Source: Burkholderia diffusa (lineage in GTDB: Bacteria; Pseudomonadota; Gammaproteobacteria; Burkholderiales; Burkholderiaceae). From it: a stretch of 64,000 nucleotides of DNA. The stretch spans positions 806,001-870,000 of the forward strand of contig NZ_CP013363.1 of assembly GCF_001718315.1 (NCBI RefSeq), given 5' to 3'. The notes beneath the pieces are model-generated. The model saw nothing but the letters and a program-made list of their open reading frames with translations, was not told the origin of the DNA and did not search any database. Of the stretch, positions 8,087 to 61,817 are shown one piece after another (positions within the stretch are counted from its first letter, which is position 1; each line of letters begins with the position of its first letter). The translations under genes were made by a program, and so were the position numbers.

Positions 8087-9592
8087 ATGAAGCACGCCAG
8101 CGAGCGCGCGGCCGGCACGGCCGGCGGCGCGGACCCCCGTCATGCCGACCGGGACGCGATGTTCGCGTCGCACGAAACCGGCTACGAGAAACAGTTGAAG
8201 CCGCGACACGTGCAGATGATCGCGATGGGCGGAGCGATCGGCACCGGCCTCTTTCTCGGCGCGGGCGGTCGCCTGCAGAGCGCGGGGCCTGCGCTCGCGG
8301 TCGTGTATCTCGTGTGCGGCGCATTCGCCTTCCTGATCATGCGCGCGCTCGGCGAGCTCGTGATGCATCGACCGACCAGCGGCTCGTTCGTGTCATACGC
8401 ACGCGAGTTCATGGGCGAGCGCGCGTCGTTCGTCGCGGGCTGGATGTACTACCTGAACTGGGCCACCACCGGCATCGTCGACATCACGGCGGTCGCGATC
8501 TACATGAAGTACTGGGCCGTGTTCACGGACGTGCCGCAGTGGGTGTTCGCGCTCGGCGCGCTGGGGATCGTGTCGGTGATGAACATGATCGGCGTGAAGG
8601 TGTTCGGCGAGATGGAGTTCTGGTTCTCGATCGTCAAGGTGGGGACGCTCGCGTTGTTCCTCGCGGTCGGCGCCGTGTTTCTCGCGAGCGGCCATCCGGT
8701 CGCGGGGCAGATGCCGGGGCTGCACCTGATCGCGGATCACGGCGGGATCTTCCCGCACGGAATCCTGCCGGCCGTGCTGATCGTGCAGGGCGTCGTGTTC
8801 GCGTACGCGAGCATCGAGCTCGTCGGCGTCGCGGCGGGCGAGACCGCCGATGCGCGCAAGGTGCTGCCGAAGGCGATCAACAGCGTGATGTGGCGCATTG
8901 CGCTGTTCTATGTCGGCTCGGTCGTGCTGTTGACGATGCTGCTGCCGTGGACCGCGTACAGCGCGCACGAAAGCCCGTTCGTCACGTTCTTCAGCAAGCT
9001 CGGCGTGCCGTACGTCGGCACGGTGATGAATGTCGTGGTGCTGACCGCCGCGCTGTCGAGCCTGAACTCCGGCCTCTATTCGACCGGGCGCGTGCTGCGT
9101 TCGCTGGCGATGGGCGGCTCGGCGCCGCGCTTCGTGTCGCGGATGAACGCGCGCGGCGTGCCGTACGGCGGGATCCTCGTCACGGTCGCGGTCAATGCGA
9201 TCGGCGTGCCGCTGAACTACATCGTTCCGGCGCAGGCGTTCGAGATCGTGCTGAACATGGCGTCGCTCGGGATCATCACGACCTGGGGCTTCATCGTGAT
9301 GTGCCAGATCCTGTTCCGCCGCGCAGTCAATCGCGGCGAGCTGAGCCCGGTGTCGTTCCGGATGCCCGGCGCGCCGTTCACGTCGTGGCTGACGCTCGGG
9401 TTTCTCGTCAGCGTGCTGGTGATGATGGCGTTCGATTACCCGGGCGGCACGTGGACCGTCGGGATGATCCCGGTCGTCGTGCTCGCGCTCGTGGTCGGCT
9501 GGAAGCTCGCGAAGCGCGGTGCCGCGCAGGAAGCTGCTGCCGCCGCCACTGCCGCTGCGCCGATCGGCGCCGATCCGGCGAGCAACGTCTGA
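8087..9592 (+). CDS. ansP: Amino acid permease, APC family (AnsP/GABA-permease type)
   Basis: The 501-residue protein has about twelve hydrophobic segments and the amino-acid-transporter signature near its N-terminus (LKPRHVQMIAMGGAIGTGLFLG), where the GGAIGTGLF loop binds substrate carboxyl and amino groups. It would import an amino acid by proton symport across the inner membrane. Similarity of the signature region and the position after asparaginase and aspA make asparagine (AnsP) the best guess; other close APC permeases for GABA, proline or aromatic amino acids cannot be excluded. The C-terminal tail is a low-complexity Ala run. A GC-rich hairpin follows the stop codon. Confidence 0.85.
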   Translation: MKHASERAAGTAGGADPRHADRDAMFASHETGYEKQLKPRHVQMIAMGGAIGTGLFLGAGGRLQSAGPALAVVYLVCGAFAFLIMRALGELVMHRPTSGSFVSYAREFMGERASFVAGWMYYLNWATTGIVDITAVAIYMKYWAVFTDVPQWVFALGALGIVSVMNMIGVKVFGEMEFWFSIVKVGTLALFLAVGAVFLASGHPVAGQMPGLHLIADHGGIFPHGILPAVLIVQGVVFAYASIELVGVAAGETADARKVLPKAINSVMWRIALFYVGSVVLLTMLLPWTAYSAHESPFVTFFSKLGVPYVGTVMNVVVLTAALSSLNSGLYSTGRVLRSLAMGGSAPRFVSRMNARGVPYGGILVTVAVNAIGVPLNYIVPAQAFEIVLNMASLGIITTWGFIVMCQILFRRAVNRGELSPVSFRMPGAPFTSWLTLGFLVSVLVMMAFDYPGGTWTVGMIPVVVLALVVGWKLAKRGAAQEAAAAATAAAPIGADPASNV

Positions 9593-47489: not shown

Positions 47490-48485
47490 TTACCGTGTGC
47501 CGCCGACGCTGCGGCGCGCGATGCGCGCGGCAGGCTCGCTCGACTGCCCGGTGGCGCGGGCGGTGTCGGCCGCGACGCGCGGGCGGTTCATGATGTAGGT
47601 CCACAACTGTTCGGCTGCAAGCCCGCGCTTGCGCGCGGACCGGTACAGGCGGATCTCGAGTTCGGTGATCCAGTCCGCCGAGCCAGCACGGACGAGGGAA
47701 CCCTCCGCGAGCTCCTTCGCCACACAGCTTTCGGGCAGCCAGCCGATCCCGTGCCCGGCCACGACCATTCCCTTCAATGCCTCGGACATATGCGTCTCGA
47801 AGCACCGGTGCAGCGCATACGATTCGGCTGCGTTCAGCAGCAGCATCTCCACGACGTTCCCGAGGAAGGCGCCCGACGAATACGCGAGGAGCGGCAGCGG
47901 GTCGTCGGGCGTGCCGGGCAGTTCGAACACCGGCTTGCCGCGCGCGTCGGGCGTCGACACCGGCAGGATCCGTTCGACGCCGAGCGTGACGAACGGAAAA
48001 TGGTTCGGATCGAGCACGATCGGCAGTTGCGGATGGTGATAGCCGAGCAGCAGGTCGCATTCACCTTCGACGAGCTGCTGCACGCCTTCGGGCACGTTCA
48101 CCGCATTCACGCGCGCGGTCACGTGGCCGACTTCGCCGTTGAGCTGCTTGAGCCATTCGGGGAACAGCGTAAACACGAGCGTATGCGCGACCGCGAAGCG
48201 CACGACCTGGTCGCTTGCCGCGAACTGATCGTAGCCGTTCACGAGGTTGCGTGCCGCGTACATGCTGCGCAGGATGTCCGCGGCCAGCCCGCGGAACATC
48301 TGCCCGGCCGGCGTCAGCGCGATCGGGTTGATGCTGCGGTCCACCAGCTTCGCGTCCATCCATGTTTCGAGCGCGGCGATTCGTCGGCTGAATGCCGACT
48401 GCGTGAGATGCCGATGACGCGCGGCCCGGGAAAAGCTCTTGGTATCCGCAAGGCTCAGGAAATCTTCCAGCCACTTTGCTTCCAT
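47490..48485 (-). CDS. LysR-family transcriptional regulator (HypT/YjiE-like group)
   Basis: The 331-residue protein has a helix-turn-helix with the pattern WLEDFLSLADTKSFSRAARHRHLTQSAFSRRIAALE, which resembles the HypT (YjiE) subgroup, and a standard effector domain. The C-terminal 25 residues (ARATGQSSEPAARIARRS) are an extra tail. HypT itself responds to hypochlorite; whether this protein does is unknown. It stands alone: the pga operon is on its downstream side, the amidoligase locus on its upstream side, divergent, across about 690 bases. Confidence 0.88.
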   Translation of the reverse strand: MEAKWLEDFLSLADTKSFSRAARHRHLTQSAFSRRIAALETWMDAKLVDRSINPIALTPAGQMFRGLAADILRSMYAARNLVNGYDQFAASDQVVRFAVAHTLVFTLFPEWLKQLNGEVGHVTARVNAVNVPEGVQQLVEGECDLLLGYHHPQLPIVLDPNHFPFVTLGVERILPVSTPDARGKPVFELPGTPDDPLPLLAYSSGAFLGNVVEMLLLNAAESYALHRCFETHMSEALKGMVVAGHGIGWLPESCVAKELAEGSLVRAGSADWITELEIRLYRSARKRGLAAEQLWTYIMNRPRVAADTARATGQSSEPAARIARRSVGGTR

Positions 48486-49179
48486 TTCGATCTTCGCTTT
48501 TTATAGTCGGCGCCGGAAGGGCGGCGCCGTTTCACTGAACCGGTTTGGTAGCGTACCGCGCCTTGCGCACGGGAGCCGATGTTTTTTTTCGATAGGTGTC
48601 AGTCGAAATATGCATGGGCGTTGTCGGCGGTATTACGGCTGCATACGTTTGAGGTGCCGGACCCGGCTAACCGGTTAGTTCACCGCGTCGAACTGCCCGA
48701 CTTGCCGCAGACGGTACTTCCCCAGGGCCGGCCGCATGCGCGCGCCGGCCCGCCTTCCCGCTATTCCGCCAGGCAACCGAAGGATGTGGCGCAATCCGCG
48801 TCGCGGTGCAGGATGCGGTGCCGCAACGGGTCGCCGATGCCGGTTCGCGGTCCGCCGTGATGCGGCAGCACGGTAATCGGCGAGGCGCGTCGCCAAGGGA
48901 AGGATTGGTGCAGTGCAGATTGCACAGTGGTGACACGCAGGGGAACCATGCTGGACGGGCGCGATGCAGCAGCGGCCGTGCGCGCGCCACGGCACGCCGC
49001 TGGCGCGTCTTGCGCCATGCGTCGCACCATGGTGGTGCGGCGTGCCGCGCAGGCGTGCCGGCCGTGCGACAAAAAGGGGGACCTGAGGGAATATCGCAAG
49101 GCACGGTCCTTGCGAGGCAGTCAGTACGCCGGTCCGGCATGCGCAATGCCGGGGAAAACGATCGATGGAGAAAAGATCG
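48486..49179. other. Gene-free region upstream of the amidoligase locus
   Basis: About 690 bases separate the divergent LysR and ATP-grasp genes. Frames on the minus strand (for example 48675-49217) are rich in Arg, His and Ala and have no ribosome binding site. An AT-rich patch at 48575-48615 may belong to the LysR promoter. GTGCA and TGCAC face each other at 48908-48925. The promoter of the downstream locus is expected here, but I cannot fix it. Confidence 0.5.
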
Positions 49180-50595
49180 ATGAAGCCATTCGATGAAATG
49201 CTGCAATCCGGCGACATGGTGAGGGCGCCTTACGCGCGCCTCAAGCAGTGGCTCGACACGCAGAACCCTGCGAGCCTCGCCCAGAAGGCCCACGATGCGG
49301 AAGGCGTGTTCCGCAGGACGGGCATCACGTTCGCCGTGTACGGCGACGCGCAGGCCGCCGAGCGGCTGATTCCGTTCGACATCGTGCCGCGGATCATCTC
49401 GGGTGCGGAATGGAGCCGGCTGTCGCTCGGCATCGAGCAGCGCGTGATGGCGCTCAACGCGTTCCTCGACGACATCTATCACCGCCAGGAGATCGTGCGC
49501 GCCGGCATCGTGCCGAAGCACCTGATCGCGCACAACGAGGCGTTCATTCCGGAGATGATCGATTTCCGGCCACCCGGGAACGTTTACACGCACATCATCG
49601 GCGTCGACATCGTGCGCACCGGCGAGAACGAGTTCTACGTGCTGGAGGACAACGCGCGCACGCCGTCGGGCGTGTCGTACATGCTGGAAAACCGCGAGAC
49701 GATGATGCAGCTCTTCCCCGAGCTGTTCCAGCAGGTCAAGGTGCGCCCGGTCGAGACCTATCCGCAGATGCTGCGGCAGTCGCTCGCGGCCGTGTGCCCG
49801 CCGGGCGGCAACGCCGACAACCCGACCATCGCCGTGCTCACGCCCGGCATCCACAATTCGGCGTACTACGAACATTCGTTTCTCGCCGACCAGATGGGTG
49901 TGCACCTCGTCGAGGGCAGCGACCTGCAGGTGGTCGACGGTCGCGTCGCGATGCGCACCACCGAAGGCTTCCGGCCGATCGACGTGCTGTACCGCCGCGT
50001 CGACGACGCGTTTCTCGATCCGCTTACGTTCCGCCCAGATTCGGTGCTCGGCGTCGCCGGGATCATGGACGTCTACCGCGCCGGCAACATCACGATCGCG
50101 AACGCACCCGGCACCGGCATCGCCGACGACAAGGCGATCTACTCGTACATGCCGGAGATCGTCGAGTTCTACACGGGCCGCAAGGCGCTGCTGGAGAACG
50201 TGCCGACCTGGCGCTGCGGCGAGGCCGACAGCCTTAAATACGTGCTCGACCATCTCGACGAACTGGTCGTGAAGGAAGTGCACGGCTCGGGCGGGTACGG
50301 GATGCTGGTCGGTCCGTGTGCATCGAAGGCCGAACTCGAGGCGTTCGCCGCGAAGCTGCGCGCGCGTCCCGCCAACTACATCGCGCAACCCACGCTGGCG
50401 TTGTCCACGACGCCGATCCTGACCGAGGCCGGCCTCGCGCCGCGCCACGTCGACCTGCGGCCGTTCGTGCTGGTGTCGGACCGGATCCGCATCACGCCGG
50501 GCGGGCTCACGCGCGTCGCGCTGCAGGAGGGATCGCTCGTCGTCAACTCGAGCCAGGGCGGCGGCACCAAGGACACCTGGGTGCTGGCCGACTGA
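49180..50595 (+). CDS. Circularly permuted ATP-grasp protein (DUF404/DUF407 type)
   Basis: The 471-residue cytoplasmic protein belongs to the circularly permuted ATP-grasp family (COG2308). Typical blocks are FDIVPRIISGAEWSRLSLGIEQRVMALNAFL, DNARTPSGVSYMLENR, and the nucleotide-loop stretch VVKEVHGSGGYGMLVG. ATP-grasp enzymes join a carboxyl group to an amine, making amide bonds; family members are predicted peptide ligases. The start at 49180 has GGAG nine bases upstream and gives the family length; an ATG at 49165 is possible. It heads six same-strand genes that together form two amidoligase/alpha-E/transglutaminase sets. Confidence 0.9.
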   Translation: MKPFDEMLQSGDMVRAPYARLKQWLDTQNPASLAQKAHDAEGVFRRTGITFAVYGDAQAAERLIPFDIVPRIISGAEWSRLSLGIEQRVMALNAFLDDIYHRQEIVRAGIVPKHLIAHNEAFIPEMIDFRPPGNVYTHIIGVDIVRTGENEFYVLEDNARTPSGVSYMLENRETMMQLFPELFQQVKVRPVETYPQMLRQSLAAVCPPGGNADNPTIAVLTPGIHNSAYYEHSFLADQMGVHLVEGSDLQVVDGRVAMRTTEGFRPIDVLYRRVDDAFLDPLTFRPDSVLGVAGIMDVYRAGNITIANAPGTGIADDKAIYSYMPEIVEFYTGRKALLENVPTWRCGEADSLKYVLDHLDELVVKEVHGSGGYGMLVGPCASKAELEAFAAKLRARPANYIAQPTLALSTTPILTEAGLAPRHVDLRPFVLVSDRIRITPGGLTRVALQEGSLVVNSSQGGGTKDTWVLAD

Positions 50596-50659
50596 GCCGG
50601 GCACGACCGCGCGCGCCGCAGCCGGCGCGCGAACCGAACGAAGACGGAGTGGACACGAG

Positions 50660-51601
50660 ATGCTTCTGGGACGAACTGCGAGCGGTCTCTACTGGATGTA
50701 CCGCTATATCGAGCGCGCGGAGAACATCGCGCGCATCGTCGATGCCGGGCTGCGGATGGCGCTCACGCGCACGTCCGACGCGCCGGCCGAATGGTCGTCG
50801 GTGCTGGTCAGCTCGGGCGCGGACGGCGGCTATCGTCAGAAGTACGACGCATATGCCGCCGATACCGTGACCGACTACCTGCTGCGCGACCGCGACAATC
50901 CGTCGAGCGTGCTGTCGTGCATCGAGGCCGCGCGTTCGAACGCGCGGATGGTGCGCACGGCGCTCACCCGCGAGGCGTGGGAGAGCGTGAACGGCGCATG
51001 GCTCGCGCTGCGCCACGCGCTCGCGCAGCCGGTGCCGGAGAGCGGGCTGCCGGCGGTGCTCGACGGCGTGAAGCGCGAAACCGCGCTGATCCTCGGCAGC
51101 TTCTACAGCACGATGCTGCGCAACGAGATCTTCGATTTCGCGCAGATCGGCGCGTTCGTCGAGCGGGCCGACAACACCGCGCGGATCCTCGACGTGAAAT
51201 ACCACCTGCTGCTGCCATCGGTCTCGCACGTCGGCACGATCCTCGACAACTACCAGTGGGAGACGATCCTGCGCTGCGTGGCCGCGCACCGGTCGTATCG
51301 CTGGGTGTACGACGTGCAGTACAAGCCGATGAACATCGCCGACTACCTGATCCTGAACGGCCGCATGCCGCGTTCGCTGCGCTATTGCTACGGGCGCGTG
51401 GTGTCGAGCCTGAACCTGCTCGCGAAGGATTACGGCGTGACACACCCGTGTCACGACACGGCCACGAAGATTCTGCAGATGTTGTCCGACACCTCGGTCG
51501 ACCGGATCTTCAAGAGCGGCCTGCACGAGTTCCTGACCGATTTCATCGGCCGCAACAACAGCCTCGGGATCGACATCGCCCAGGCGTACAACTTCGACTG
51601 A
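50660..51601 (+). CDS. Alpha-E domain protein
   Basis: The 313-residue all-helical protein is a stand-alone alpha-E domain (PF04168), named for its conserved Glu-Arg pairs. Both are seen: YIERAENIARIVDAG near residue 18 and FVERADNTARILDVK near residue 170. Alpha-E proteins always accompany circularly permuted ATP-grasp ligases, either as a separate gene, as here, or fused, as in the gene at 56313. They are predicted to act as partner or accessory catalytic domain of the ligase. It lies 65 bases after the ligase gene and nine bases before the transglutaminase gene. Confidence 0.92.
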   Translation: MLLGRTASGLYWMYRYIERAENIARIVDAGLRMALTRTSDAPAEWSSVLVSSGADGGYRQKYDAYAADTVTDYLLRDRDNPSSVLSCIEAARSNARMVRTALTREAWESVNGAWLALRHALAQPVPESGLPAVLDGVKRETALILGSFYSTMLRNEIFDFAQIGAFVERADNTARILDVKYHLLLPSVSHVGTILDNYQWETILRCVAAHRSYRWVYDVQYKPMNIADYLILNGRMPRSLRYCYGRVVSSLNLLAKDYGVTHPCHDTATKILQMLSDTSVDRIFKSGLHEFLTDFIGRNNSLGIDIAQAYNFD

Positions 51602-51609
51602 GGCTCGCC

Positions 51610-52584
51610 ATGCGACTCGCCATCCGACACATCTCGCGTTATCAGTTCGACGATCAAGCCACCCATGCACTGCAACGGCTGCGGCTGCGCCCGCAATCGG
51701 GGCCGGGGCAGACGGTGCGCGCGTGGCAGGTCACGATCGACGGCGTCGAGCCGGCGCTGTCCTACGCGGACGGGCTCGGCAACCGGATCGACCTCGTGCG
51801 CCACGACCGCGGTGCGAAGAACGAGATCGTCGTGATCGCGGCCGGCGTCGTCGAGACGCAGGACCGCGCCGGCATTCTCGGCAACCCCGAGGGCTATGCG
51901 CCGCCGTGGATCTTCGAGCGCGAGACCGCGCTCACGAAGGCGGGCGACACCGTGCGCGCGCTCACGCAGGCGCTGCCGATCGAGCCGCACAGCCTCGACG
52001 CGCTGCACTGGCTGATGACGGAAGTGCACGGCCGCATCGCGTACGCGCCGAACCTGGCAGATACGCCGGTCGATGCCGAAACCGCGCTGCAAAGCGGCGA
52101 AGGCACGAGCCGCGATCATGCGCATGCGTTCATCGCGGCCGCGCGCGCGCTGAAGGTGCCCGCGCGCTACATCTCCGGTTACGTCCTCGCGGACAGCGCG
52201 ATGCAGCGCATCGCCGACGCGAAGCAGAGCGTCGGCGGCGACGAGGAAGAGGAGGCGCTCGCACTGCAAAGCGGCGACGGCATGCAGCAGGTGCTCGGCG
52301 CATCGCACGCCGCGCAGTCGCAGGGATTGCCGCAGGCGGCGCTCGGCGGGCAACCGCAGGCCGCCGCGCTGATGCAGCAGCCGGCCGGCCATGCGTGGGC
52401 GGAGGCCTACGTCGAAGGGCTCGGCTGGGTCGGCTTCGATCCGTTCATGAACCGCTGCCCGGACGAGCGCTACGTGCGCATCGCGGTCGGCCTCGACGCG
52501 CGCGACGCGCAGCCGGTGACGGGGCTCGGTGCGAGCACCGTCGGCATCGAGATCAGCGTCGTGCAGTCGCCGGAACTGGTCTGA
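51610..52584 (+). CDS. Transglutaminase-like protein with Ser in place of the catalytic Cys
   Basis: The 324-residue cytoplasmic protein has the bacterial transglutaminase N-terminal domain (about 1-85) and a transglutaminase core. Alignment by eye with its two paralogues in the locus (GSCRD, GVCQDFAH) puts S167 (GTSRDHAH, codon AGC at 52108) where the nucleophile Cys should be; H261 and D277 of the triad are kept (GHAWAEAYVEGLGWVGFD). A roughly 60-residue Gln/Ala/Glu-rich insert separates two parts of the core (about 198-258). It may be inactive as a peptidase and serve for binding, or act as a Ser hydrolase. It begins nine bases after the alpha-E gene. Confidence 0.88.
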   Translation: MRLAIRHISRYQFDDQATHALQRLRLRPQSGPGQTVRAWQVTIDGVEPALSYADGLGNRIDLVRHDRGAKNEIVVIAAGVVETQDRAGILGNPEGYAPPWIFERETALTKAGDTVRALTQALPIEPHSLDALHWLMTEVHGRIAYAPNLADTPVDAETALQSGEGTSRDHAHAFIAAARALKVPARYISGYVLADSAMQRIADAKQSVGGDEEEEALALQSGDGMQQVLGASHAAQSQGLPQAALGGQPQAAALMQQPAGHAWAEAYVEGLGWVGFDPFMNRCPDERYVRIAVGLDARDAQPVTGLGASTVGIEISVVQSPELV

Positions 52585-52677
52585 CGCATCCCTTCGCCGA
52601 ATCCGCCGTGCCGGGCCGCCGCAGCGACGGCGGCGCGGCGCGCGCGGCCGGCCCAACCCGAACCGAGCGGCTCTCCC

Positions 52678-55600
52678 ATGCCTATTCACGTCGCGCTGCA
52701 TCACACCACCCGCTACCGCTACGACCGGCCCGTCAACCTCGGCCCGCAGATCGTGCGGCTGCGGCCCGCACCGCACTGCCGGACGCCGATCGTCGCGTAC
52801 TCGATGACGGTCGAGCCCGCGCAGCACTTCATCAACTGGCAGCAGGATCCGTTCTCGAACTATCTCGCGCGGCTCGTGTTTCCGGAACGCACCGAACACT
52901 TCGAGATCACGATCGACCTGGTTGCCGAGATGTCGGTGTACAACCCGTTCGACTTCTTTCTGGAAGCGAGCGCGGAGCAATATCCGTTCAACTATGACGA
53001 TGCACTGAAGACCGAACTTGCGCCGTACCTCGCATGCGATCCGCAGACGAGCGCCGCGCCGCTGTTCCGGGCGTACCTCGACGGCGTCGACCGCACGCCG
53101 GCCGGCACCGTGAACTTCCTCGTCGCGCTGAACCAGCAGTTGCAGCACGACATCGGCTATCTCGTGCGGATGGAGCCGGGCGTGCAGACGCCCGAGCAGA
53201 CGCTCGAGCTCGCATCCGGATCGTGCCGCGACAGCGCATGGCTGCTCGTGCAGCTGTGTCGGCATCTCGGCATCGCCGCGCGCTTCGTGTCCGGCTACCT
53301 GATCCAGCTCACACCCGACGTGAAGGCGCTCGACGGTCCGAGCGGCACGTCGGTCGACTTCACCGACCTGCATGCGTGGTGCGAAGTCTATCTGCCGGGC
53401 GCGGGCTGGATCGGATTCGATCCGACCTCGGGCCTGCTCGCCGGCGAAGGGCACATCCCGCTCGCCTGCACGCCGCAGCCGACCAGCGCGGCGCCGGTCG
53501 AAGGGCTGATCGACGAATGCGAAGTCGCGTTCGAGCACGAGATGACGGTGACGCGCGTGTACGAATCGCCGCGCGTGACGAAGCCGTATACCGAGTCGCA
53601 GTGGGACGCCGTGCGCACGCTCGGCGCGCAGGTCGATGATGCGCTGAGCGCCGGCGACGTGCGGCTCACGCAGGGCGGCGAGCCGACTTTCGTATCGATC
53701 GACGATCGCGACGGCGCCGAATGGAACACCGACGCGCTCGGTCCGACCAAACGCGGTTATGCGACCGAACTCGTGCAGCGGCTGCGCGCCGAATACGGCG
53801 AAGGCGGCTTCCTGCATTTCGGGCAGGGAAAGTGGTACCCGGGCGAGCAGTTGCCGCGCTGGGCGCTGTCGATCTTCTGGCGCGCCGACGGCCAGCCCGT
53901 GTGGCACGATCCGTCGCTGTTCGCCGACGAGCGCGAGCCGTCCGCGTGCACGACAGACGACGCGAAGCGCTTCATCGACGCGCTGGCCGCGCGCCTCGGG
54001 CTGACCGACGAATTCGTGCGGCCCGGCTACGAGGACGTCTGGTACTACCTGTGGCGCGAGCGCCGGCTGCCCGTCAACGTCGATCCGTTCGATTCGCGCC
54101 TCGACGACGAGCTCGAACGCGCGCGGCTGCGCAAGGTGTTCGACCAGCAGCTCGACAGCGTGGTCGGCTATGTGCTGCCGATCAAGCGTGCGGACGATGT
54201 GCCGGGCCGCGATCGGCCGGGCCGCGATCGGCCGGGCCTCGATGGCCCGCGCTGGCAGACGGGGCCGTGGTTCTTCCGCGACGAGCGGATGTACCTCGTG
54301 CCCGGCGATTCGCCGATGGGCTATCGACTGGCGCTCGATTCGCTGCCGTGGGTCGCCGGCGCCGACTATCCGTACCTGATCGAACGCGATCCGTTCGCGC
54401 CGCGCGACGCGCTTCCGGACGCGGCCGCGTTTCGCGCGCGTCATGCGGGCACGGCCGACGCGCCGCGCTACCTGGCCGGCGCGCATCGCGAAGCGCCCGT
54501 GCAAACGGTCATGCAGTGGCGCAGCGACGGCACGGCCGCCGGGGAACGGCACGCGCATGGCGCGCCGGACGCGCAGCGCCGCCCCGAGCGCTTCGAATCG
54601 GCCGCATGGATCACGCGTACCGCGCTGTGCGCCGAAGTGCGCAACGGCATCCTGTACCTGTTCATGCCGCCGCTCGCCGCGCTCGAGGACTATCTCGATC
54701 TGCTCGCCGCGATCGAGCTGACCGCGCATGCGCTCGGCGTGAAGCTCGTGCTCGAAGGCTATCCGCCGCCGCGCGACGCACGGCTCAAGCTGCTGCAGGT
54801 CACGCCCGATCCCGGCGTGATCGAGGTGAACATCCATCCGGCCAGGAGCTTCGACGAACTCGTCGGCCAGACCGAATTCCTGTACGACGCTGCCTGGCAG
54901 ACCCGCCTGTCCAGCGAGAAGTTCATGGTCGACGGCCGGCACGTCGGCACGGGCGGCGGCAACCACTTCGTGCTCGGCGGCGCGACGCCGGCCGACAGCC
55001 CGTTCCTGCGCCGCCCGGACCTGCTCGCGAGCCTGATCGCTTACTGGCACAACCATCCGTCGCTGTCGTATCTGTTCTCGGGATTGTTCATCGGTCCGAC
55101 GAGCCAGGCGCCGCGCGTCGACGAGGCCCGCAACGACCAGGTCTACGAGCTCGACATCGCATTCGCGGAAATCCAGCGCAACAAGCTGCTGTACGGACAG
55201 GACATGCCGCCGTGGCTTGTGGACCGCGTGCTGCGCAACCTGCTGATCGACGTGACCGGCAACACGCATCGCAGCGAGTTCTGCATCGACAAGCTGTATT
55301 CGCCGGATTCGCCGACCGGACGGCTCGGCCTGCTCGAACTGCGCGCGTTCGAGATGCCGCCGCATGCGCGGATGAGCATCGTGCAGCAACTGCTGCTGCG
55401 CGCGCTGGTCGCGCGCTTCTGGGCCGCGCCATACACGACCCCGCTTACGCGCTGGGGCACCGCGCTGCACGATCGTTTCATGCTGCCCGCGTTCCTGAAG
55501 ATGGATTTCGACGACGTGCTGGCCGAGCTGCGCGACGCCGGGTTCGCGTTCGATCCAGCCTGGTTCGCGCCGCATTTCGAATTCCGCTTCCCGCTGTTCG

Positions 55601-56127
55601 GCCAGATCGCGGTGAACGGAATGCAGCTGTCGCTGCGCGGCGCGCTGGAACCGTGGCACGTGATGGGCGAGGAGGGCGCGATCGGCGGCACGGTGCGCTA
55701 CGTCGATTCGTCGGTCGAACGGCTCGAAGTGTGTGTGACCGGTCTGAACGACAACCGGCACGTCGTGACCGTGAACGGCCGCGCGCTGCCGCTGCAGCCG
55801 ACCGGCACCGTCGGCGAATACGTCGCGGGCGTGCGTTACAAGGCGTGGGCGCCGCCGTCGGCGCTGCACCCGACTATCGGCGTGCATGCGCCGCTCACGT
55901 TCGACATCGTCGACACGTGGCTGCAACGCTCGCTCGGCGGCTGCCGCTATCACGCCGCGCATCCGGGCGGGCGCAACTACGCGACGTTTCCGGTCAACGC
56001 GTACGAGGCCGAGAGCCGCCGGCTCGCGCGCTTTGTCGCGATGGGGCACACGCCGGGGCGGATGGACGTGTCGGCTGCCGCGCCGAGTCGCGAATTCCCG
56101 TTCACGCTCGACCTGCGACGGCCCTGA
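52678..56127 (+). CDS. Large transglutaminase-DUF2126 putative amidoligase
   Basis: The 1149-residue protein fuses an N-terminal transglutaminase part (about 1-290; C183 in SGSCRDSAW, H232 in LHAWCEVY, D248 in IGFDPTSG) to a long DUF2126 domain (about 310-1145). DUF2126 is described as a putative amidoligase related to the glutamate-cysteine ligase/glutamine synthetase fold. Conserved pieces include FHFGQGKWYPGEQLPRWAL, INIHPARSF-like EVNIHPARSFDEL and GTGGGNHFVLGGATPADSPFLRRPDL. The combination suggests making one amide bond and breaking or transferring another. It lies about 90 bases after the Ser-type transglutaminase. In-frame 15-bp repeats occur near residues 509-523. Confidence 0.92.
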   Translation: MPIHVALHHTTRYRYDRPVNLGPQIVRLRPAPHCRTPIVAYSMTVEPAQHFINWQQDPFSNYLARLVFPERTEHFEITIDLVAEMSVYNPFDFFLEASAEQYPFNYDDALKTELAPYLACDPQTSAAPLFRAYLDGVDRTPAGTVNFLVALNQQLQHDIGYLVRMEPGVQTPEQTLELASGSCRDSAWLLVQLCRHLGIAARFVSGYLIQLTPDVKALDGPSGTSVDFTDLHAWCEVYLPGAGWIGFDPTSGLLAGEGHIPLACTPQPTSAAPVEGLIDECEVAFEHEMTVTRVYESPRVTKPYTESQWDAVRTLGAQVDDALSAGDVRLTQGGEPTFVSIDDRDGAEWNTDALGPTKRGYATELVQRLRAEYGEGGFLHFGQGKWYPGEQLPRWALSIFWRADGQPVWHDPSLFADEREPSACTTDDAKRFIDALAARLGLTDEFVRPGYEDVWYYLWRERRLPVNVDPFDSRLDDELERARLRKVFDQQLDSVVGYVLPIKRADDVPGRDRPGRDRPGLDGPRWQTGPWFFRDERMYLVPGDSPMGYRLALDSLPWVAGADYPYLIERDPFAPRDALPDAAAFRARHAGTADAPRYLAGAHREAPVQTVMQWRSDGTAAGERHAHGAPDAQRRPERFESAAWITRTALCAEVRNGILYLFMPPLAALEDYLDLLAAIELTAHALGVKLVLEGYPPPRDARLKLLQVTPDPGVIEVNIHPARSFDELVGQTEFLYDAAWQTRLSSEKFMVDGRHVGTGGGNHFVLGGATPADSPFLRRPDLLASLIAYWHNHPSLSYLFSGLFIGPTSQAPRVDEARNDQVYELDIAFAEIQRNKLLYGQDMPPWLVDRVLRNLLIDVTGNTHRSEFCIDKLYSPDSPTGRLGLLELRAFEMPPHARMSIVQQLLLRALVARFWAAPYTTPLTRWGTALHDRFMLPAFLKMDFDDVLAELRDAGFAFDPAWFAPHFEFRFPLFGQIAVNGMQLSLRGALEPWHVMGEEGAIGGTVRYVDSSVERLEVCVTGLNDNRHVVTVNGRALPLQPTGTVGEYVAGVRYKAWAPPSALHPTIGVHAPLTFDIVDTWLQRSLGGCRYHAAHPGGRNYATFPVNAYEAESRRLARFVAMGHTPGRMDVSAAAPSREFPFTLDLRRP
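54202..54246 (+). repeat. Three in-frame 15-bp repeats within the DUF2126 gene
   Basis: Two exact copies of CCGGGCCGCGATCGG and a third with two changes encode a PGRDR-PGRDR-PGLDG run. Being a multiple of three, copy changes would keep the frame. The run lies between recognisable blocks and is probably a surface loop. Confidence 0.8.
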
Positions 56128-56312
56128 TCCCCGGATGAACGAACGGACGACGATGCGCGGTTCGCGACCTCCCGGCGCGCCGGCCGACGGCGGCCCCGCC
56201 GGAGTGCTAGGATGCGGGCAGAACGCGGCCGCCCGTCGCGTCCGCGGTGCCCGGCCGCCGATTCGGCGGCGCGCGGGCGCGTCCGCACCCTGACGACGGA
56301 ACGATACCGACC

Positions 56313-58961
56313 GTGCCGCCCATTCACCCCGACGATCTCGCCGACGCCGACGCGATGCCCACGCTCTTCGATACCGGCGCGCAGCCGGATGCCGCGGAAC
56401 TGGCCGCCGCGCTCGCGGCGCCGGCCGCGGCTGGCCGCTACGACGAACTGCGCGGCAGCGCCGCGGGCCTCACCGCGCCGCTGCTCGCACCTGCATGGCG
56501 CAGCTTCTTCACGTCGATCGGCAGCGATGGCGTGGCCGACCTCGACCGCCGCGCCGACGCGCTGCAGCGCCGAATGCGCGAGAACGGCCTGTTCTACCAG
56601 CTTCACGAACAACGCGCGGGCGACGGCGCCGCCGGCCCGTGGTCGCTCGACCTGCTGCCGCTCATCGTCACGCCCGAGGACTGGGTCGCGATCGAGCGGG
56701 GCGTGCTGCAGCGCGTGCGGCTGCTGAACGCGACGATGGTCGACCTGTACGGGCCGCAGACGATCCTGCAGCGCGGGCTGCTGCCGCCCGCGCTCGTGAC
56801 CGGGCATCCGGGCTACCTGCGCGCGATGCGCGGCGCACGCGTGCCGGGCGATACGTGGCTGCACGTCGTCGCGTTCGACCTCGCGCGCGGCCCCGACGGG
56901 CAATGGCGGATCGTCGCGCAGCACACGCAGGGCGCGGCCGGCCTCGGCTATCTGCTCGAGAACCGGCTGATCGTGTCGCGGCTCTTTCCGCGCGGCTTCC
57001 GCGGGCTGCGCGTGCAGCGGCTCGCGTCCGCCTACCGGTCGCTGTTGCAGAGCTTGCAGGCGCTCAGCCCTGCCGCCAGGAATTCGCGGATCGTGCTGCT
57101 GACGCCGGGGCCGCACAGCGCGACGTATTTCGAGCATGCGTATCTCGCGCGCTACCTCGGCCTGACGCTCGTCGAGGGCGGCGACCTGACCGCGCGCGAC
57201 AACCGCGTATTTCTGAAGACGCTGCGCGGGCTCGAACCCGTGCATGGCATCCTGCGGCGCGTCGACGACGCATGGCTCGATCCGCTCGAACTGCGGCCCG
57301 ACTCGCTGCTCGGCGTGCCGGGGCTGCTGCAGGCCGTGCGTGCGGGCAACGTGCTGCTCGCGAATGCGCCGGGCTCGGGCTTCCTCGAATCGCCGGGCGT
57401 GCTCGGCTTCATGCCTCGCCTCGCGGAAGCGCTGCTCGGCGAAACGCTGACGCTGCCCGCCGTGCATTCGTGGTGGTGCGGCGAGGCGGCAGCATGCGAC
57501 GACGCGCTGCCGCAGCTCGCGCGCAGCATCGTGAAGCCGTCGTATCCGCCCGACGCGCAGGCCGGCGGCGCGTTCGACCCGGTGATCGGCGCACGGCTCA
57601 CGCCGGCGCAACTGGCCGAATGGCGTGCGCGAATCCTGGACCGGCCCGAGCATTACACGGTGCAGGCCGACCTGCCGCTGTCGCAGGCGCCGACCTGGCC
57701 GGGGCAAGGCGCGCCCGACGGGGCCGGTGGCGCGCGCATCGTGCCGAAGCCGCTGCTGCTGCGCGTGTTCGCGCTCGCCGATGGCGCGCAACGCTGGCGG
57801 CTCCTGCCGGGCGGGCTGTCGCGGGTCGGCACGCGCGATACGCTGTTCAACGCGCCGATGCCGCGTGGCGGCAGCACCGTCGATACGTGGGTGATGACCG
57901 AAGGCATCGTCGATTCGACGACGCTGCTGCAGACCCGTCTCGGCCCCGACGATCTGGTCGAGCGCCCGCGCGCGATCGCGAGCCGCGCGGCCGAGAACCT
58001 GTTCTGGCTCGGCCGCTACACCGAGCGCGCGACCAACCTGATGCGTCTCGCGCGCGCCGCGCTCGAACGGCTGCGCGGCGAGGACGACGTCGACAGTCCC
58101 GCACATCTCGAGTTGCTCGACACGCTGTGCCGCGACACGGGACTGATCGCGCCCGACGCGCCGAATGCCGTCGATGCGCCGCGCGCGTTCCAGCACACGC
58201 TCGCGACATCGCTGACGCGCGGCGCGGACCGCACGTCGGGCATCGCGTCGTGCCTGTTCGGGATGCGCGCCGCCGCCGCCGCGATCCGCGAACGGCTGTC
58301 GAGCGATCAGTGGCGGCTGATCGACGATGCGACGCAACTGTTCGCCGACAGCGCCGATCATCCGGAAGCCGAGGAGCAAATGGGCAACGAGGCGCTGCAA
58401 TTGCTCGAGCGGCTCGGGCTGCTGCTCGGCGCGATCACCGGCGCGCAGACCGACAACATGACGCGCGACGACGGCTGGCGGTTGCTGTCGATCGGCCGGC
58501 AGATCGACCGGCTGGATTTCCTGTGCAGCGTGCTGAAGTTCGCGTTCGACGATGGCGCCGTGCACCGGCAGGACGGCTTCGAGCTCGTGCTGGAACTGTT
58601 CGACAGCACGATCACGTTTCGCTCGCGCTTCCAGCGCGGTTTCGACGTCGCGCCGCTGCTGTCGCTCGTGGTGCTCGACACCGACAACCCGCGTTCGCTC
58701 GGCTGGGTCGTGCAAGCGCTGCGCGGCCGGCTGACGAAGGTCGAGCGCAGCGAGGGCTATGCGCTGTCCGAACTGGCCGAGACGATTCCGGATGTGCCCG
58801 CATGGTCGCTGCATGAACTGTGCGAAACCGGCGACGACGGCCGCCACGACAAGCTGCTCGATGCACTCGACACGACTGTGAAGGCCGTGTGGGATCTGTC
58901 GAACCGGATCGGCGAGCGCTATTTCAGCCACGTGCGCGAGGCGGGCAGGACGCTATGGTGA
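56313..58961 (+). CDS. Circularly permuted ATP-grasp ligase fused to an alpha-E domain
   Basis: The 882-residue protein repeats in one chain what the genes at 49180 and 50660 encode separately. The first 500 residues are the ATP-grasp part (LDLLPLIVTPEDWVAIERGVLQRVRLLNATMVDLYGP region; NRVFLKTLRGLEPVHGILRRVDDAWLDPLELRPDSLLG). The last 350 form the alpha-E domain with LGRYTERATNLMRLAR and IGRQIDRLDFL. The GTG at 56313 is the likely start; an ATG at 56355 is possible, and neither has a strong ribosome binding site. The end overlaps the next transglutaminase gene by seven bases. Confidence 0.9.
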   Translation: MPPIHPDDLADADAMPTLFDTGAQPDAAELAAALAAPAAAGRYDELRGSAAGLTAPLLAPAWRSFFTSIGSDGVADLDRRADALQRRMRENGLFYQLHEQRAGDGAAGPWSLDLLPLIVTPEDWVAIERGVLQRVRLLNATMVDLYGPQTILQRGLLPPALVTGHPGYLRAMRGARVPGDTWLHVVAFDLARGPDGQWRIVAQHTQGAAGLGYLLENRLIVSRLFPRGFRGLRVQRLASAYRSLLQSLQALSPAARNSRIVLLTPGPHSATYFEHAYLARYLGLTLVEGGDLTARDNRVFLKTLRGLEPVHGILRRVDDAWLDPLELRPDSLLGVPGLLQAVRAGNVLLANAPGSGFLESPGVLGFMPRLAEALLGETLTLPAVHSWWCGEAAACDDALPQLARSIVKPSYPPDAQAGGAFDPVIGARLTPAQLAEWRARILDRPEHYTVQADLPLSQAPTWPGQGAPDGAGGARIVPKPLLLRVFALADGAQRWRLLPGGLSRVGTRDTLFNAPMPRGGSTVDTWVMTEGIVDSTTLLQTRLGPDDLVERPRAIASRAAENLFWLGRYTERATNLMRLARAALERLRGEDDVDSPAHLELLDTLCRDTGLIAPDAPNAVDAPRAFQHTLATSLTRGADRTSGIASCLFGMRAAAAAIRERLSSDQWRLIDDATQLFADSADHPEAEEQMGNEALQLLERLGLLLGAITGAQTDNMTRDDGWRLLSIGRQIDRLDFLCSVLKFAFDDGAVHRQDGFELVLELFDSTITFRSRFQRGFDVAPLLSLVVLDTDNPRSLGWVVQALRGRLTKVERSEGYALSELAETIPDVPAWSLHELCETGDDGRHDKLLDALDTTVKAVWDLSNRIGERYFSHVREAGRTLW

Positions 58962-60004
58962 CGCCGAAACACGCGGCGAAGACGTCGCCCGCGACCGGTC
59001 ACGGTAGCGCGAAGGAGGCCGCGACGCCCGCCGCACCCGCAACGCCGGCTGCTGTCGCGGCCGGCCGCGTGCTGCGCGTCACGCACGATACCGAATACCG
59101 CTATGCCGCACGCGTCGAATCCGCCCAGCACCAGGCACGGCTGCAGCCGCTCGCGACGCCGCGCCAGCAGGTATTGTCATTCGCGCTCGACATCGAGCCC
59201 GCACCGGAAACGGTCGGCACCGAGATCGACGCGTTCGGCAACGCGCGCGCATCGTTCGCGCTGAACCAGCCTCACGATGCGCTGCTCGTGCGCAGCCGCA
59301 GCACGGTGCGCGTGAGCGCGCCCGTCTGGTCGCAGGGCGCACGCGGCGCGCCGCCGCCCGCGATCGCGCATCCCGACGCCGAACATGCAACGGCATGGGA
59401 GGCCGTGCGCGACCGCTTGCGGTTTCGTGCCGGACAGCCGTACGACGCGGCGAGCGAGTTCGTGTTCGCGTCGCCGCACGTGGCGTGCGATCCCGAGCTG
59501 GCCGCGTATGCGGCCGCCAGCTTCACGCCACGGCGGCCGCTCGTGCAGGCCGCGTGGGACCTGATGCGGCGAATTCACGCCGACTTCGCGTATACGCCGA
59601 ACAGCACCGACATCACGACGACGGCGCTCGATGCATTGCGATTGCGCAAGGGCGTCTGTCAGGATTTCGCGCACGTGATGATTGGCGCGTTGCGCTCGCT
59701 CGGGCTTGCCGCGCGCTACGTGAGCGGTTATCTGCTGACGCAGCCGCCGCCCGGGCAGCCGCGACTGATCGGCGCGGACGCATCGCATGCATGGGTCGAC
59801 GTATACGACCCGGCGTGGCCCGAAGACGGTGGTTGGCTGCAGCTCGACCCGACCAACGACCGTGCACCCGGCGACGATTACGTGATGCTGTCGATCGGCC
59901 GCGATTACGCGGACGTGACGCCGCTGCGCGGCGTGATTCGCGGCGGCGGCGCGGATCAGGAGCTGAAGGTCGGCGTGACGGTCGAACCGCTCGATACGCC
60001 GTGA
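58955..60004 (+). CDS. Transglutaminase family protein with intact catalytic triad
   Basis: The 349-residue protein has an Ala/Pro-rich N-terminal tail (about 1-35), the bacterial transglutaminase N-terminal domain and a core with C235 (GVCQDFAH), H278 (ASHAWVDVY) and an Asp in LQLDPTND. No signal peptide is evident. Proteins of this family in such loci are predicted cysteine peptidases or amide transferases acting on the ligase product. The ATG at 58955 overlaps the fusion gene's stop, so the two are translated together. It is the last gene of the locus. Confidence 0.93.
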   Translation: MVTPKHAAKTSPATGHGSAKEAATPAAPATPAAVAAGRVLRVTHDTEYRYAARVESAQHQARLQPLATPRQQVLSFALDIEPAPETVGTEIDAFGNARASFALNQPHDALLVRSRSTVRVSAPVWSQGARGAPPPAIAHPDAEHATAWEAVRDRLRFRAGQPYDAASEFVFASPHVACDPELAAYAAASFTPRRPLVQAAWDLMRRIHADFAYTPNSTDITTTALDALRLRKGVCQDFAHVMIGALRSLGLAARYVSGYLLTQPPPGQPRLIGADASHAWVDVYDPAWPEDGGWLQLDPTNDRAPGDDYVMLSIGRDYADVTPLRGVIRGGGADQELKVGVTVEPLDTP

Positions 60005-60193
60005 GCCACGCGGGATGAGCGGGCCGGCGCCGTGCTCGCCGGCCGTTTAAGTCTTCGTTAATACTGCCCGCCTAGCATGGTGATGCCGGCGAACGGACCG
60101 GGCCATGGTCCCGCGCCGGCGGCACGCGCGGGTGCGTCGACGTCACGGCGCCGCGCCGTCGCGCGTGGCCATTCCCTTGCAACGGCGGCAGAC

Positions 60194-60466
60194 ATGATCA
60201 AGAACTTCGACTACACGCTCGGCAACGAGACGATCGCGCTGTGCGCGAGCTTCGGTGCGGGCCCCGCGTTCCGTCGCGTGCTCGTGAGCCGCGCGGATTC
60301 GATGGAGACGCTCGTGGTGCTCGACGCGCGCGGCCTGTCGGGCCTGCTGAAGGTCGCGACCGAAGAGCCGGAAGGATTGCTCGACGATGCGATCCGCAAG
60401 GTCGGCGACGAACAGCTCGTCGAGCGGGCGATCCGCGGCCGGACGATCGTCGAAGCCGCGCTTTGA
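60194..60466 (+). CDS. Small conserved-looking hypothetical protein, 90 aa
   Basis: The 90-residue protein (MIKNFDYTLGNETIALCASFGAG...) has no signal peptide or membrane segment and mixes short strands and helices. The C-terminal half is acidic, then basic (DDAIRKVGDEQLVERAIRGRT). GGCGGCAGAC is a modest ribosome binding site before the ATG. It lies about 190 bases after the transglutaminase gene, on the same strand, so it may or may not belong to that operon. I do not recognise a family. Confidence 0.65.
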   Translation: MIKNFDYTLGNETIALCASFGAGPAFRRVLVSRADSMETLVVLDARGLSGLLKVATEEPEGLLDDAIRKVGDEQLVERAIRGRTIVEAAL

Positions 60467-60482
60467 GCAGGCGGCGCGTGCA

Positions 60483-60506
60483 GGCCGGCATTGCCCATTG
60501 CCGGCC
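60483..60506. terminator. Hairpin between convergent small gene and pip
   Basis: GGCCGGCA and TGCCGGCC form a perfect 8-bp stem with an 8-base loop in the 65-base gap between converging genes. There is no T-run. Confidence 0.65.
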
Positions 60507-60531
60507 GCAACGCGCCGCCTGGCGTTGCCGC

Positions 60532-61611
<1,080 letters not shown>

Positions 61612-61817
61612 TCATTATGCCCATTCATTCCGGCCGCGGTGTGCCGGCCGGCACCGTGCATGGCGCGCAGCGTGCCGCGCTGACAGACGCATCGAAATTT
61701 TTTGAAGCAATTTCGTTCCGATATTTTTCAGACAAAATCCCGGCGACATATCGGCGAGCCGGTCGCGGGCGCCGGCCTTCATACCGTTCCTCCACCGTGC
61801 CAACGGGAAACGAGCCG

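What the first reader, a model, noticed from the sequence alone, without database searches (positions are those of the whole stretch)
49180..60004. Two-module amidoligase/alpha-E/transglutaminase locus of unknown product
Six genes encode a split set (ATP-grasp, alpha-E, transglutaminase), a giant transglutaminase-DUF2126 protein, and a fused set (ATP-grasp-alpha-E, transglutaminase). Comparative genomics has predicted such loci to synthesise or tailor peptides through amide bonds, but to my knowledge no product has been proved. Having three ligase-type and three transglutaminase-type domains in a row, without a recognisable carrier, precursor peptide, transporter or proteasome-like Anbu gene, leaves the substrate open. 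The 90-residue protein encoded just downstream could be a substrate candidate.
Basis: partly seen in the sequence, partly recalled or inferred. Interest (0 to 1): 0.75.

Follow-up and report, generated by a model that had tools for sequence, protein, structure and literature searches.

The report
Nitrogen-starvation amide-bond enzyme locus, chimeric
A Burkholderia chromosome carries six neighbouring genes for amide-bond chemistry that seem to have been put together from two sources and placed behind a nitrogen-starvation switch; two of the presumed active enzymes have altered active sites, which changes what the set could be making.

Summary
The six genes are real and correctly placed (49180-60004, + strand). 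They form two modules of different ancestry. Module A (g1 ATP-grasp, g2 alpha-E, g3 transglutaminase fold) is closest to alphaproteobacterial Anbu operons; module B (g4 TG-DUF2126, g5 fused ATP-grasp-alpha-E, g6 TG) is native to Burkholderiaceae. The fused ATP-grasp has lost residues that all 96 split copies keep (Glu153 in 1 of 78 fused copies; Asn155, Asp314, Lys315 in none), so it is probably not a ligase. g3 has Ser in place of the catalytic Cys in all 63 genus genomes read (of 65), with His and Asp kept. One perfect NtrC site and a sigma54 promoter lie upstream of g1 and recur in 42 of 42 genus loci tested. Published RNA-seq of B. cenocepacia H111 puts the probable orthologues of g1-g4 among the strongest NtrC targets under nitrogen limitation. 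Of 91 sampled family genomes with alpha-E, the 18 without Anbu are those of two genera in which A lies directly upstream of B. The 90-residue downstream protein is not constant (22 of 41 loci). Best reading: a nitrogen-starvation amide-conjugation system; the product remains unknown.

The parts
49024..49038 (+). NtrC-type enhancer site GCACC-N5-GGTGC
   Evidence: Only perfect match in the 64 kb window; 41 perfect and 1 with one mismatch in 42 genus module-A upstream regions
49099..49114 (+). sigma54 -24/-12 promoter (GG-N10-GC)
   Evidence: One of two sites at <=2 weighted mismatches in the window, the other at 9211 on the - strand; 42 of 42 in the genus sample
49180..50595 (+). g1: circularly permuted ATP-grasp, catalytic core intact (module A)
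   Evidence: PF14403/PF04174; residues invariant in 96 split copies; homologue solved as 3n6x
50660..51601 (+). g2: stand-alone Alpha-E (module A)
   Evidence: PF04168; all-helical model, mean pLDDT 88.1
51610..52584 (+). g3: transglutaminase-fold protein with Ser-His-Asp in place of Cys-His-Asp (module A)
   Evidence: PF08379+PF01841; Ser167/His261/Asp277 in 52 of 52 unique genus sequences; Ser motif in 63 of 65 genus genomes, the other two not read
52108..52110 (+). codon AGC of Ser167 at the catalytic Cys position
   Evidence: codon census
52198..52377 (+). glutamine-rich, length-variable, predicted disordered loop between Ser and His of g3
   Evidence: sequences; pLDDT <50 over 209-259; loop dN/dS 0.347, rest 0.135
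52678..56127 (+). g4: Cys transglutaminase domain fused to DUF2126 (module B)
   Evidence: PF08379, PF01841, PF09899; Cys-His-Asp in 60 of 60 copies aligned
56313..58961 (+). g5: degenerate ATP-grasp fused to Alpha-E (module B)
   Evidence: PF14403, PF04168; catalytic residues lost
58955..60004 (+). g6: Cys transglutaminase, overlaps the end of g5 (module B)
   Evidence: PF08379+PF01841; Cys-His-Asp in 61 of 61 copies aligned
60022..60044 (+). 8-bp GC hairpin with 7-base loop after g6, possible terminator (weak T tail)
   Evidence: read by eye from the sequence; not listed by the scan
60194..60466 (+). 90-residue protein, probably not part of the system
   Evidence: no family; 22 of 41 genus loci

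Best explanation
The locus is a cytosolic amide-conjugation system that is switched on by nitrogen starvation (NtrC and sigma54). It arose when an ATP-grasp/alpha-E/TG set from an alphaproteobacterial (Hyphomicrobiales-like) Anbu operon, without Anbu, was placed upstream of a resident DUF2126 module. How it most likely works: g1, with its partner g2, is the competent ATP-dependent ligase. It activates a carboxylate as acyl phosphate and joins it to an amine, as its distant characterised relatives, the glutathionylspermidine synthetases, do (recalled). The Cys transglutaminase domains of g4 and g6 then transfer or cleave that amide. g5 has lost its ATP-grasp catalytic residues and acts as a scaffold or regulator that carries its alpha-E domain. 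g3 keeps the fold, His and Asp, but with Ser as nucleophile it is either a binding subunit or a much altered hydrolase. In the starved cell this would tag, store or release nitrogen-bearing amines or peptides. Shown here by computation: anatomy, residue states, separate ancestry, promoter conservation, absence of Anbu. Shown in print for probable orthologues of g1-g4: NtrC dependence. Inferred: which gene does which step, that g1-g6 are one transcript, cytosolic location, and the direction of gene transfer. The substrate is not known.
For: Regulation: NtrC and sigma54 sites upstream of g1 in 42 of 42 genus loci, against neither upstream of g4 (0 of 44) and, upstream of g5, NtrC in 2 of 45 and sigma54 in 0 of 45; no sigma70-like promoter in 48500-61700 (1.1 expected). 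B. cenocepacia H111 I35_5080-83 (DUF404/407; DUF403; TG; large TG) change by -8.2, -9.4, -9.4 and -6.0 in the ntrC mutant under nitrogen limitation (PMC5491218, passages; the table calls it fold change, and for ureC and glnA the same values recur as log2 in its qPCR table). The P. putida Anbu operon PP_2685-2688 is induced by nitrogen limitation (PMC7801951, PMC3325844, PMC8050072, passages). Ancestry: module A joins L053 and, in the TG tree, Hyphomicrobiales (g1 85.4% to Brucella tritici, 60.7% to other Burkholderiaceae); DUF2126 joins Burkholderiaceae/Burkholderiales (best 68.5% there against 54.3% in alphaproteobacteria). Link of A and B: 16 of 30 DUF2126 loci fetched outside the genus hold module A in the same 20 kb, in several orientations. 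Anbu: of 91 alpha-E genomes in the family sample of 120, the 18 without Anbu are the 11 Burkholderia and 7 of genus g133, where A lies directly upstream of B in the loci read. Degenerate g5. g3 under purifying selection.
Against: No product, substrate or activity is known. g5-g6 are not named among the NtrC targets in the text, and 185 bases separate g4 from g5. Two genus genomes (G336, G360) have no DUF2126 match but keep g3 next to g5, so g4 is not always needed. Three of 65 genus genomes have Anbu besides. In P. putida the induction of PP_2686-2688 persists in an rpoN mutant (14- to 20-fold) and PP_2685 (Anbu) is at 1.12 in the wild type in that study (PMC7801951), so sigma54 control there is not borne out by that table; PMC5666114 reports unchanged expression under various other conditions. 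Both sites together are uncommon elsewhere: 0 of 4 in L020-L023, 1 of 7 in g133, 2 of 9 Burkholderiaceae Anbu operons, 5 of 32 others, 0 of 53 alphaproteobacterial Anbu loci, 0 of 23 named loci from L156 on without Anbu, 0 of 3 genus paralogues, 0 of 2 genus Anbu operons. Profile comparison gave no support for DUF2126 as a GCS2-type ligase. The synthetase analogy rests on the name of 3n6x and on recall. Fused copies keep some grasp residues (D140 in 75, R143 in 74, K362 in 40 of 78).
Confidence: 0.55

Rival explanations
1. Protein-tagging system: g1 (and perhaps DUF2126) attach a peptide or amino-acid tag to proteins, and the TG-fold proteins edit it, to steer turnover when nitrogen is short, as pupylation does in actinobacteria (recalled).
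For: Proposed in print for the Anbu operon (as cited in PMC6376114 and PMC5666114, passages). Peptidases recur beside the modules: Anbu in 17 and a zinc-ribbon metallopeptidase in 12 of the 61 loci clustered. Nitrogen-starvation control fits protein recycling.
Against: No tag gene found (g7 in 22 of 41 loci; ORFs under 70 aa not screened). In the 11 genus genomes of the family sample Anbu is in none and PF15887 in none but for one 89-residue fragment. Pull-downs in the Yersinia system found no specific complexes.
Confidence: 0.2
2. Nitrogen scavenging by hydrolysis: the Cys and Ser TG-fold proteins are amidases or peptidases that free ammonia or amino acids from unusual peptides; the ligase-type domains only bind or recycle the product.
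For: NtrC regulon membership together with urease, nitrate and dipeptide genes; co-occurrence with urea genes in marine metagenomes (PMC3597751, passage); a prolyl aminopeptidase gene lies two genes downstream on the other strand.
Against: The g1 ATP-grasp core is invariant in 96 of 96 split copies, which argues for an ATP-consuming synthetic step. No membrane segment or obvious signal peptide (hydropathy and by eye).
Confidence: 0.2
3. Secondary-metabolite or RiPP cluster that makes a secreted peptide.
Against: g3 matches in 65 of 65 genus genomes (one only a fragment) and DUF2126 in 63 of 200 sampled genomes of the phylum: a core trait, unlike a typical product cluster. No constant precursor or exporter among recurrent neighbours of 70 aa or more.
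Confidence: 0.05

Closest known systems
Anbu operon (ATP-grasp, alpha-E, TG, Anbu), e.g. P. putida PP_2685-2688
   Same: g1-g3 correspond to its ATP-grasp, alpha-E and TG genes, in the order found in alphaproteobacterial Anbu operons; both respond to nitrogen limitation
   Different: No Anbu; g3 has Ser for Cys; joined to module B
DUF2126 module (TG-DUF2126, fused ATP-grasp-alpha-E, TG)
   Same: g4-g6 are a standard copy that groups with Burkholderiaceae
   Different: No promoter of its own found; placed behind module A
B. cenocepacia H111 I35_5080-5083 (BCAM1233-1236)
   Same: Probable orthologues of g1-g4 by order and domain names
   Different: In the passages read, named only as NtrC/sigma54 targets; active-site changes and origin not mentioned there
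Glutathionylspermidine synthetase (name given to 3n6x)
   Same: g1 matches 3n6x over its length, motif residues included
   Different: Substrates of g1 unknown; g5 lacks the motif
rlo operon of P. aeruginosa
   Same: An inactive TG domain in an operon with an ATP-grasp (PMC12239564, passages)
   Different: The rlo TG is fused to seven TM helices and its ATP-grasp resembles RimK; the proteins here have no membrane segment by hydropathy

Membership tests
Anbu operon | circularly permuted ATP-grasp and alpha-E genes in tandem | tested here: met
Anbu operon | Anbu gene in the cluster or genome | tested here: not met
   no match in the own genome to an Anbu query; single proteasome-fold gene on contig 1
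Anbu operon | transglutaminase with catalytic Cys next to alpha-E | tested here: not met
   Ser167
DUF2126 module | TG-DUF2126, fused ATP-grasp-alpha-E and TG adjacent | tested here: met
ATP-grasp ligase (g1) | catalytic Glu/Asn, DDK and Gly-rich loop | tested here: met
   carries the residues invariant in 96 split copies
ATP-grasp ligase (g5) | catalytic Glu/Asn, DDK and Gly-rich loop | tested here: not met
   E153 in 1 of 78; N155, D314, K315 in 0 of 78 fused copies
COOH-NH2 (GCS2/YbdK) ligase (g4 DUF2126) | profile similarity to GCS2 | tested here: inconclusive
   hhalign probability 1.9% against an 8-row GCS2 alignment; no PDB profile match of note; no model made
RiPP/graspetide cluster | constant small precursor gene | tested here: inconclusive
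   g7 in 22 of 41 loci; ORFs under 70 aa not screened
rlo operon | membrane-anchored TG | tested here: not met
   highest 19-residue hydropathy mean over g1-g7 is 1.46

The most novel reading that the evidence does not exclude
g3 is a working serine enzyme built on the transglutaminase fold (Ser-His-Asp), fixed across the genus Burkholderia, whose glutamine-rich disordered loop beside the active site is itself the acyl donor or carrier handled by the Cys transglutaminases g4 and g6; with g5 as a pseudo-ligase, the locus would be a self-contained amide-transfer complex in which an enzyme has become the substrate.
Probability: 0.1. Interest if true: 0.8.

Novelty: new variant of a known kind. 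Interest (0 to 1): 0.52.

Why it matters
Iyer and colleagues predicted the chemistry of these loci in 2009 (known to me through papers that cite it), and in the papers I could search no product was reported. This locus narrows the question. It gives a growth condition (nitrogen starvation), one best ligase candidate (g1) instead of three, a widespread natural variant without Anbu, and a TG-fold active site fixed as Ser. The alphaproteobacterial relatives and the Caballeronia copy L156 (Cys, no Anbu in its stretch) suggest the steps by which an Anbu operon became this locus.

Tried and rejected

Choices and dropped rows: the 30 non-genus DUF2126 loci are 10 of 40 in the family list and 20 of 62 in the phylum list, picked by me for spread and contig length; I shifted some 20-kb stretches of the second set so that an alpha-E already listed fell inside, so '16 of 30' is a count for stretches partly so placed. 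One search dropped 11 rows for want of a matched start (L013, L122-L130, L147); L013 and L122-L130 read S-H-D; L147 (G371) has g3 in two frames. L089 and L093 were not placed, and some genomes appear there twice. g3 was not read in G358 and G365. One search gave L147 extra TG rows, one of them probably g6. The dN/dS pairs leave out the 11 rows dropped.
Full report
WHAT IS THERE. The window lies on contig 2 of a 6.86-Mb, three-contig genome that I take to be a Burkholderia (best segment of g1 99% identical to that of Burkholderia lata). By hydropathy the proteins have no membrane segment, and by eye no obvious signal peptide. Downstream are the 90-residue g7, a prolyl aminopeptidase on the other strand (TIGR01249 over its cut-off) and an acyltransferase; upstream is a LysR-type regulator on the other strand.

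TWO MODULES. In 39 of 40 DUF2126 loci fetched from the genus, family and phylum, g4-g6 (TG-DUF2126, fused ATP-grasp-alpha-E, TG) lie together; L038 lacks the fused gene, and gene order or strand differs in L031-L034 and L042. Split ATP-grasp plus alpha-E is a separate module: in 16 of 30 loci outside the genus it lies in the same 20 kb as module B, in several orientations. Some stretches were placed so as to include it (see Tried and rejected), and the loci are not independent; even so, at a generous 1% chance per locus 16 of 30 would have a probability near 1e-24. I infer that the modules are functionally linked.

DIFFERENT ORIGINS. In a tree of split ATP-grasp plus alpha-E (94 loci) the Burkholderia copies leave the other Burkholderiaceae and join L053, a genome of another class of the phylum. 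A named scan (best 80 of a capped list) shows the next relatives: one Caballeronia (89%), then Brucella/Ochrobactrum, Phyllobacterium and Mesorhizobium (79-85%). Of those 80 loci, 53 have Anbu in the stretch. The TG tree agrees: g3 is sister to the Caballeronia TG (Cys) and nested among Hyphomicrobiales Cys TGs. Module B of Burkholderia groups with Burkholderiaceae and Burkholderiales. Best identities run in opposite directions: g1 85.4% to alphaproteobacteria and 60.7% to other Burkholderiaceae; g4 54.3% and 68.5%. The Caballeronia copy L156 (Cys, no Anbu and no module B in its 21 kb) looks like an intermediate.

ACTIVE SITES. (a) g5: the split ATP-grasp keeps E153, N155, D313, D314, K315, K362 and the GGYG loop in 96 of 96 copies, and the solved homologue 3n6x has the motifs too. 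In 78 fused copies (in the tree, 42 from the genus and 36 from elsewhere) E153 is kept in 1, N155, D314 and K315 in none, K362 in 40, and the loop is not conserved; D140 (75), R143 (74) and R424 (77) are mostly kept. That the Glu and Asn bind magnesium is recalled from the glutathionylspermidine synthetase family, not tested. I infer that g5 is not an ATP-dependent ligase. (b) g3: module-A TGs read S-H-D in 55, C-H-D in 27 and A-H-D in 2 of 84 sequences (some genomes twice), while module-B TGs read C-H-D in 61 of 61 (g6) and 60 of 60 (g4). In g3 orthologues the Ser is fixed: 52 of 52 unique sequences and 63 of 65 genus genomes, the other two not read. Second module-A copies in the genus mostly keep Cys (L114-L116, L118, L119). 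Cys was also lost in L054 and L117 (Ser) and in L079 and L080 (Ala), which the TG tree places apart from the g3 clade. g3 is under purifying selection (median dN/dS 0.135 outside the loop, 0.347 in it, 300 random pairs). The model (mean pLDDT 78.6) has Ser167 at the start of a helix; the best structural match is the TG 3isr; the glutamine-rich loop has pLDDT below 50.

REGULATION. The window holds one perfect NtrC site (49024) and, 75 bases on, a sigma54 promoter (49099), 81 bases before the g1 start. Both occur in 42 of 42 genus loci tested. Controls: upstream of g4 neither in 44; upstream of g5 NtrC in 2 of 45 and sigma54 in 0 of 45. Elsewhere both together: alphaproteobacterial Anbu loci 0 of 53, named loci from L156 on without Anbu 0 of 23, Burkholderiaceae Anbu operons 2 of 9, g133 1 of 7, L020-L023 0 of 4, other 5 of 32, genus paralogues 0 of 3, genus Anbu operons 0 of 2. 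PMC5491218 (passages read) lists I35_5080-5083 with changes of -8.2, -9.4, -9.4 and -6.0 in an ntrC mutant under nitrogen limitation and names them as a sigma54/NtrC cluster. The match to g1-g4 rests on gene order and domain names. g5 and g6 are not named in the text. The P. putida Anbu operon is also induced by nitrogen limitation (passages), but in PMC7801951 the induction persists in an rpoN mutant and PP_2685 itself is at 1.12 in the wild type.

ANBU AND OTHER PEPTIDASES. In 120 family genomes alpha-E is in 91, DUF2126 in 51, Anbu in 73 and the zinc metallopeptidase PF15887 in 33, plus one 89-residue fragment. DUF2126 and PF15887 go together (28 both, 23 and 5 alone, 64 neither; Fisher 6.6e-9, kinship not corrected). 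The 18 alpha-E genomes without Anbu are 11 Burkholderia and 7 of genus g133 (an eighth g133 genome, G242, has no alpha-E). In the loci read from both genera module A sits directly upstream of module B on the same strand (L005 and L008 are cut in module A). Over the whole genus 3 of 65 genomes have Anbu; in the two inspected it is in a separate operon (L118, L119). So Anbu seems dispensable once A and B are joined; two lineages are few.

MECHANISM. I commit to a nitrogen-starvation amide-conjugation system with g1 as ligase, g4 and g6 as Cys acyl-transfer or hydrolysis enzymes, g5 as scaffold and g3 as altered TG. Likelihoods (judgement): nitrogen regulation 0.9, g5 not a ligase 0.8, g1 the working ligase 0.75, conjugate made then processed 0.4. 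Whether DUF2126 is a second ligase is open.

NOVELTY. The kind of system is known. In the searches made (listings, with passages of twelve papers read) I saw no report of the degenerate fused ATP-grasp, the fixed Ser, the chimeric origin or the Anbu correlation; the 2009 paper that defined the system was not readable here, so priority is not certain.

Noticed in passing
L015, L017, L018, L020-L023, L026, L029, L043, L047, L062: A zinc-ribbon metallopeptidase (PF10005+PF15887, one member checked) recurs beside modules A or B and co-occurs with DUF2126 across the family; a likely third partner peptidase.
   Followed up: partly
L074, L075, L077, L078: Anbu genes with no ATP-grasp, alpha-E or TG detected in the 15-kb stretch, in four genomes whose module A lies near module B (L020, L021, L023; G232 by coordinates).
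   Followed up: partly
L114-L117: Four Burkholderia genomes carry a second module A without Anbu or module B in the stretch; one TG has Ser, the others Cys.
   Followed up: partly
L128, L129: Two Burkholderia genomes have no DUF2126 match; g3 lies directly before the fused gene.
   Followed up: no
[not shown]
   Followed up: no
window 47490-48485: LysR-type regulator nearest to HypT, below its cut-off, on the other strand upstream of g1; its cluster includes 8 of the 11 genus loci given.
   Followed up: no
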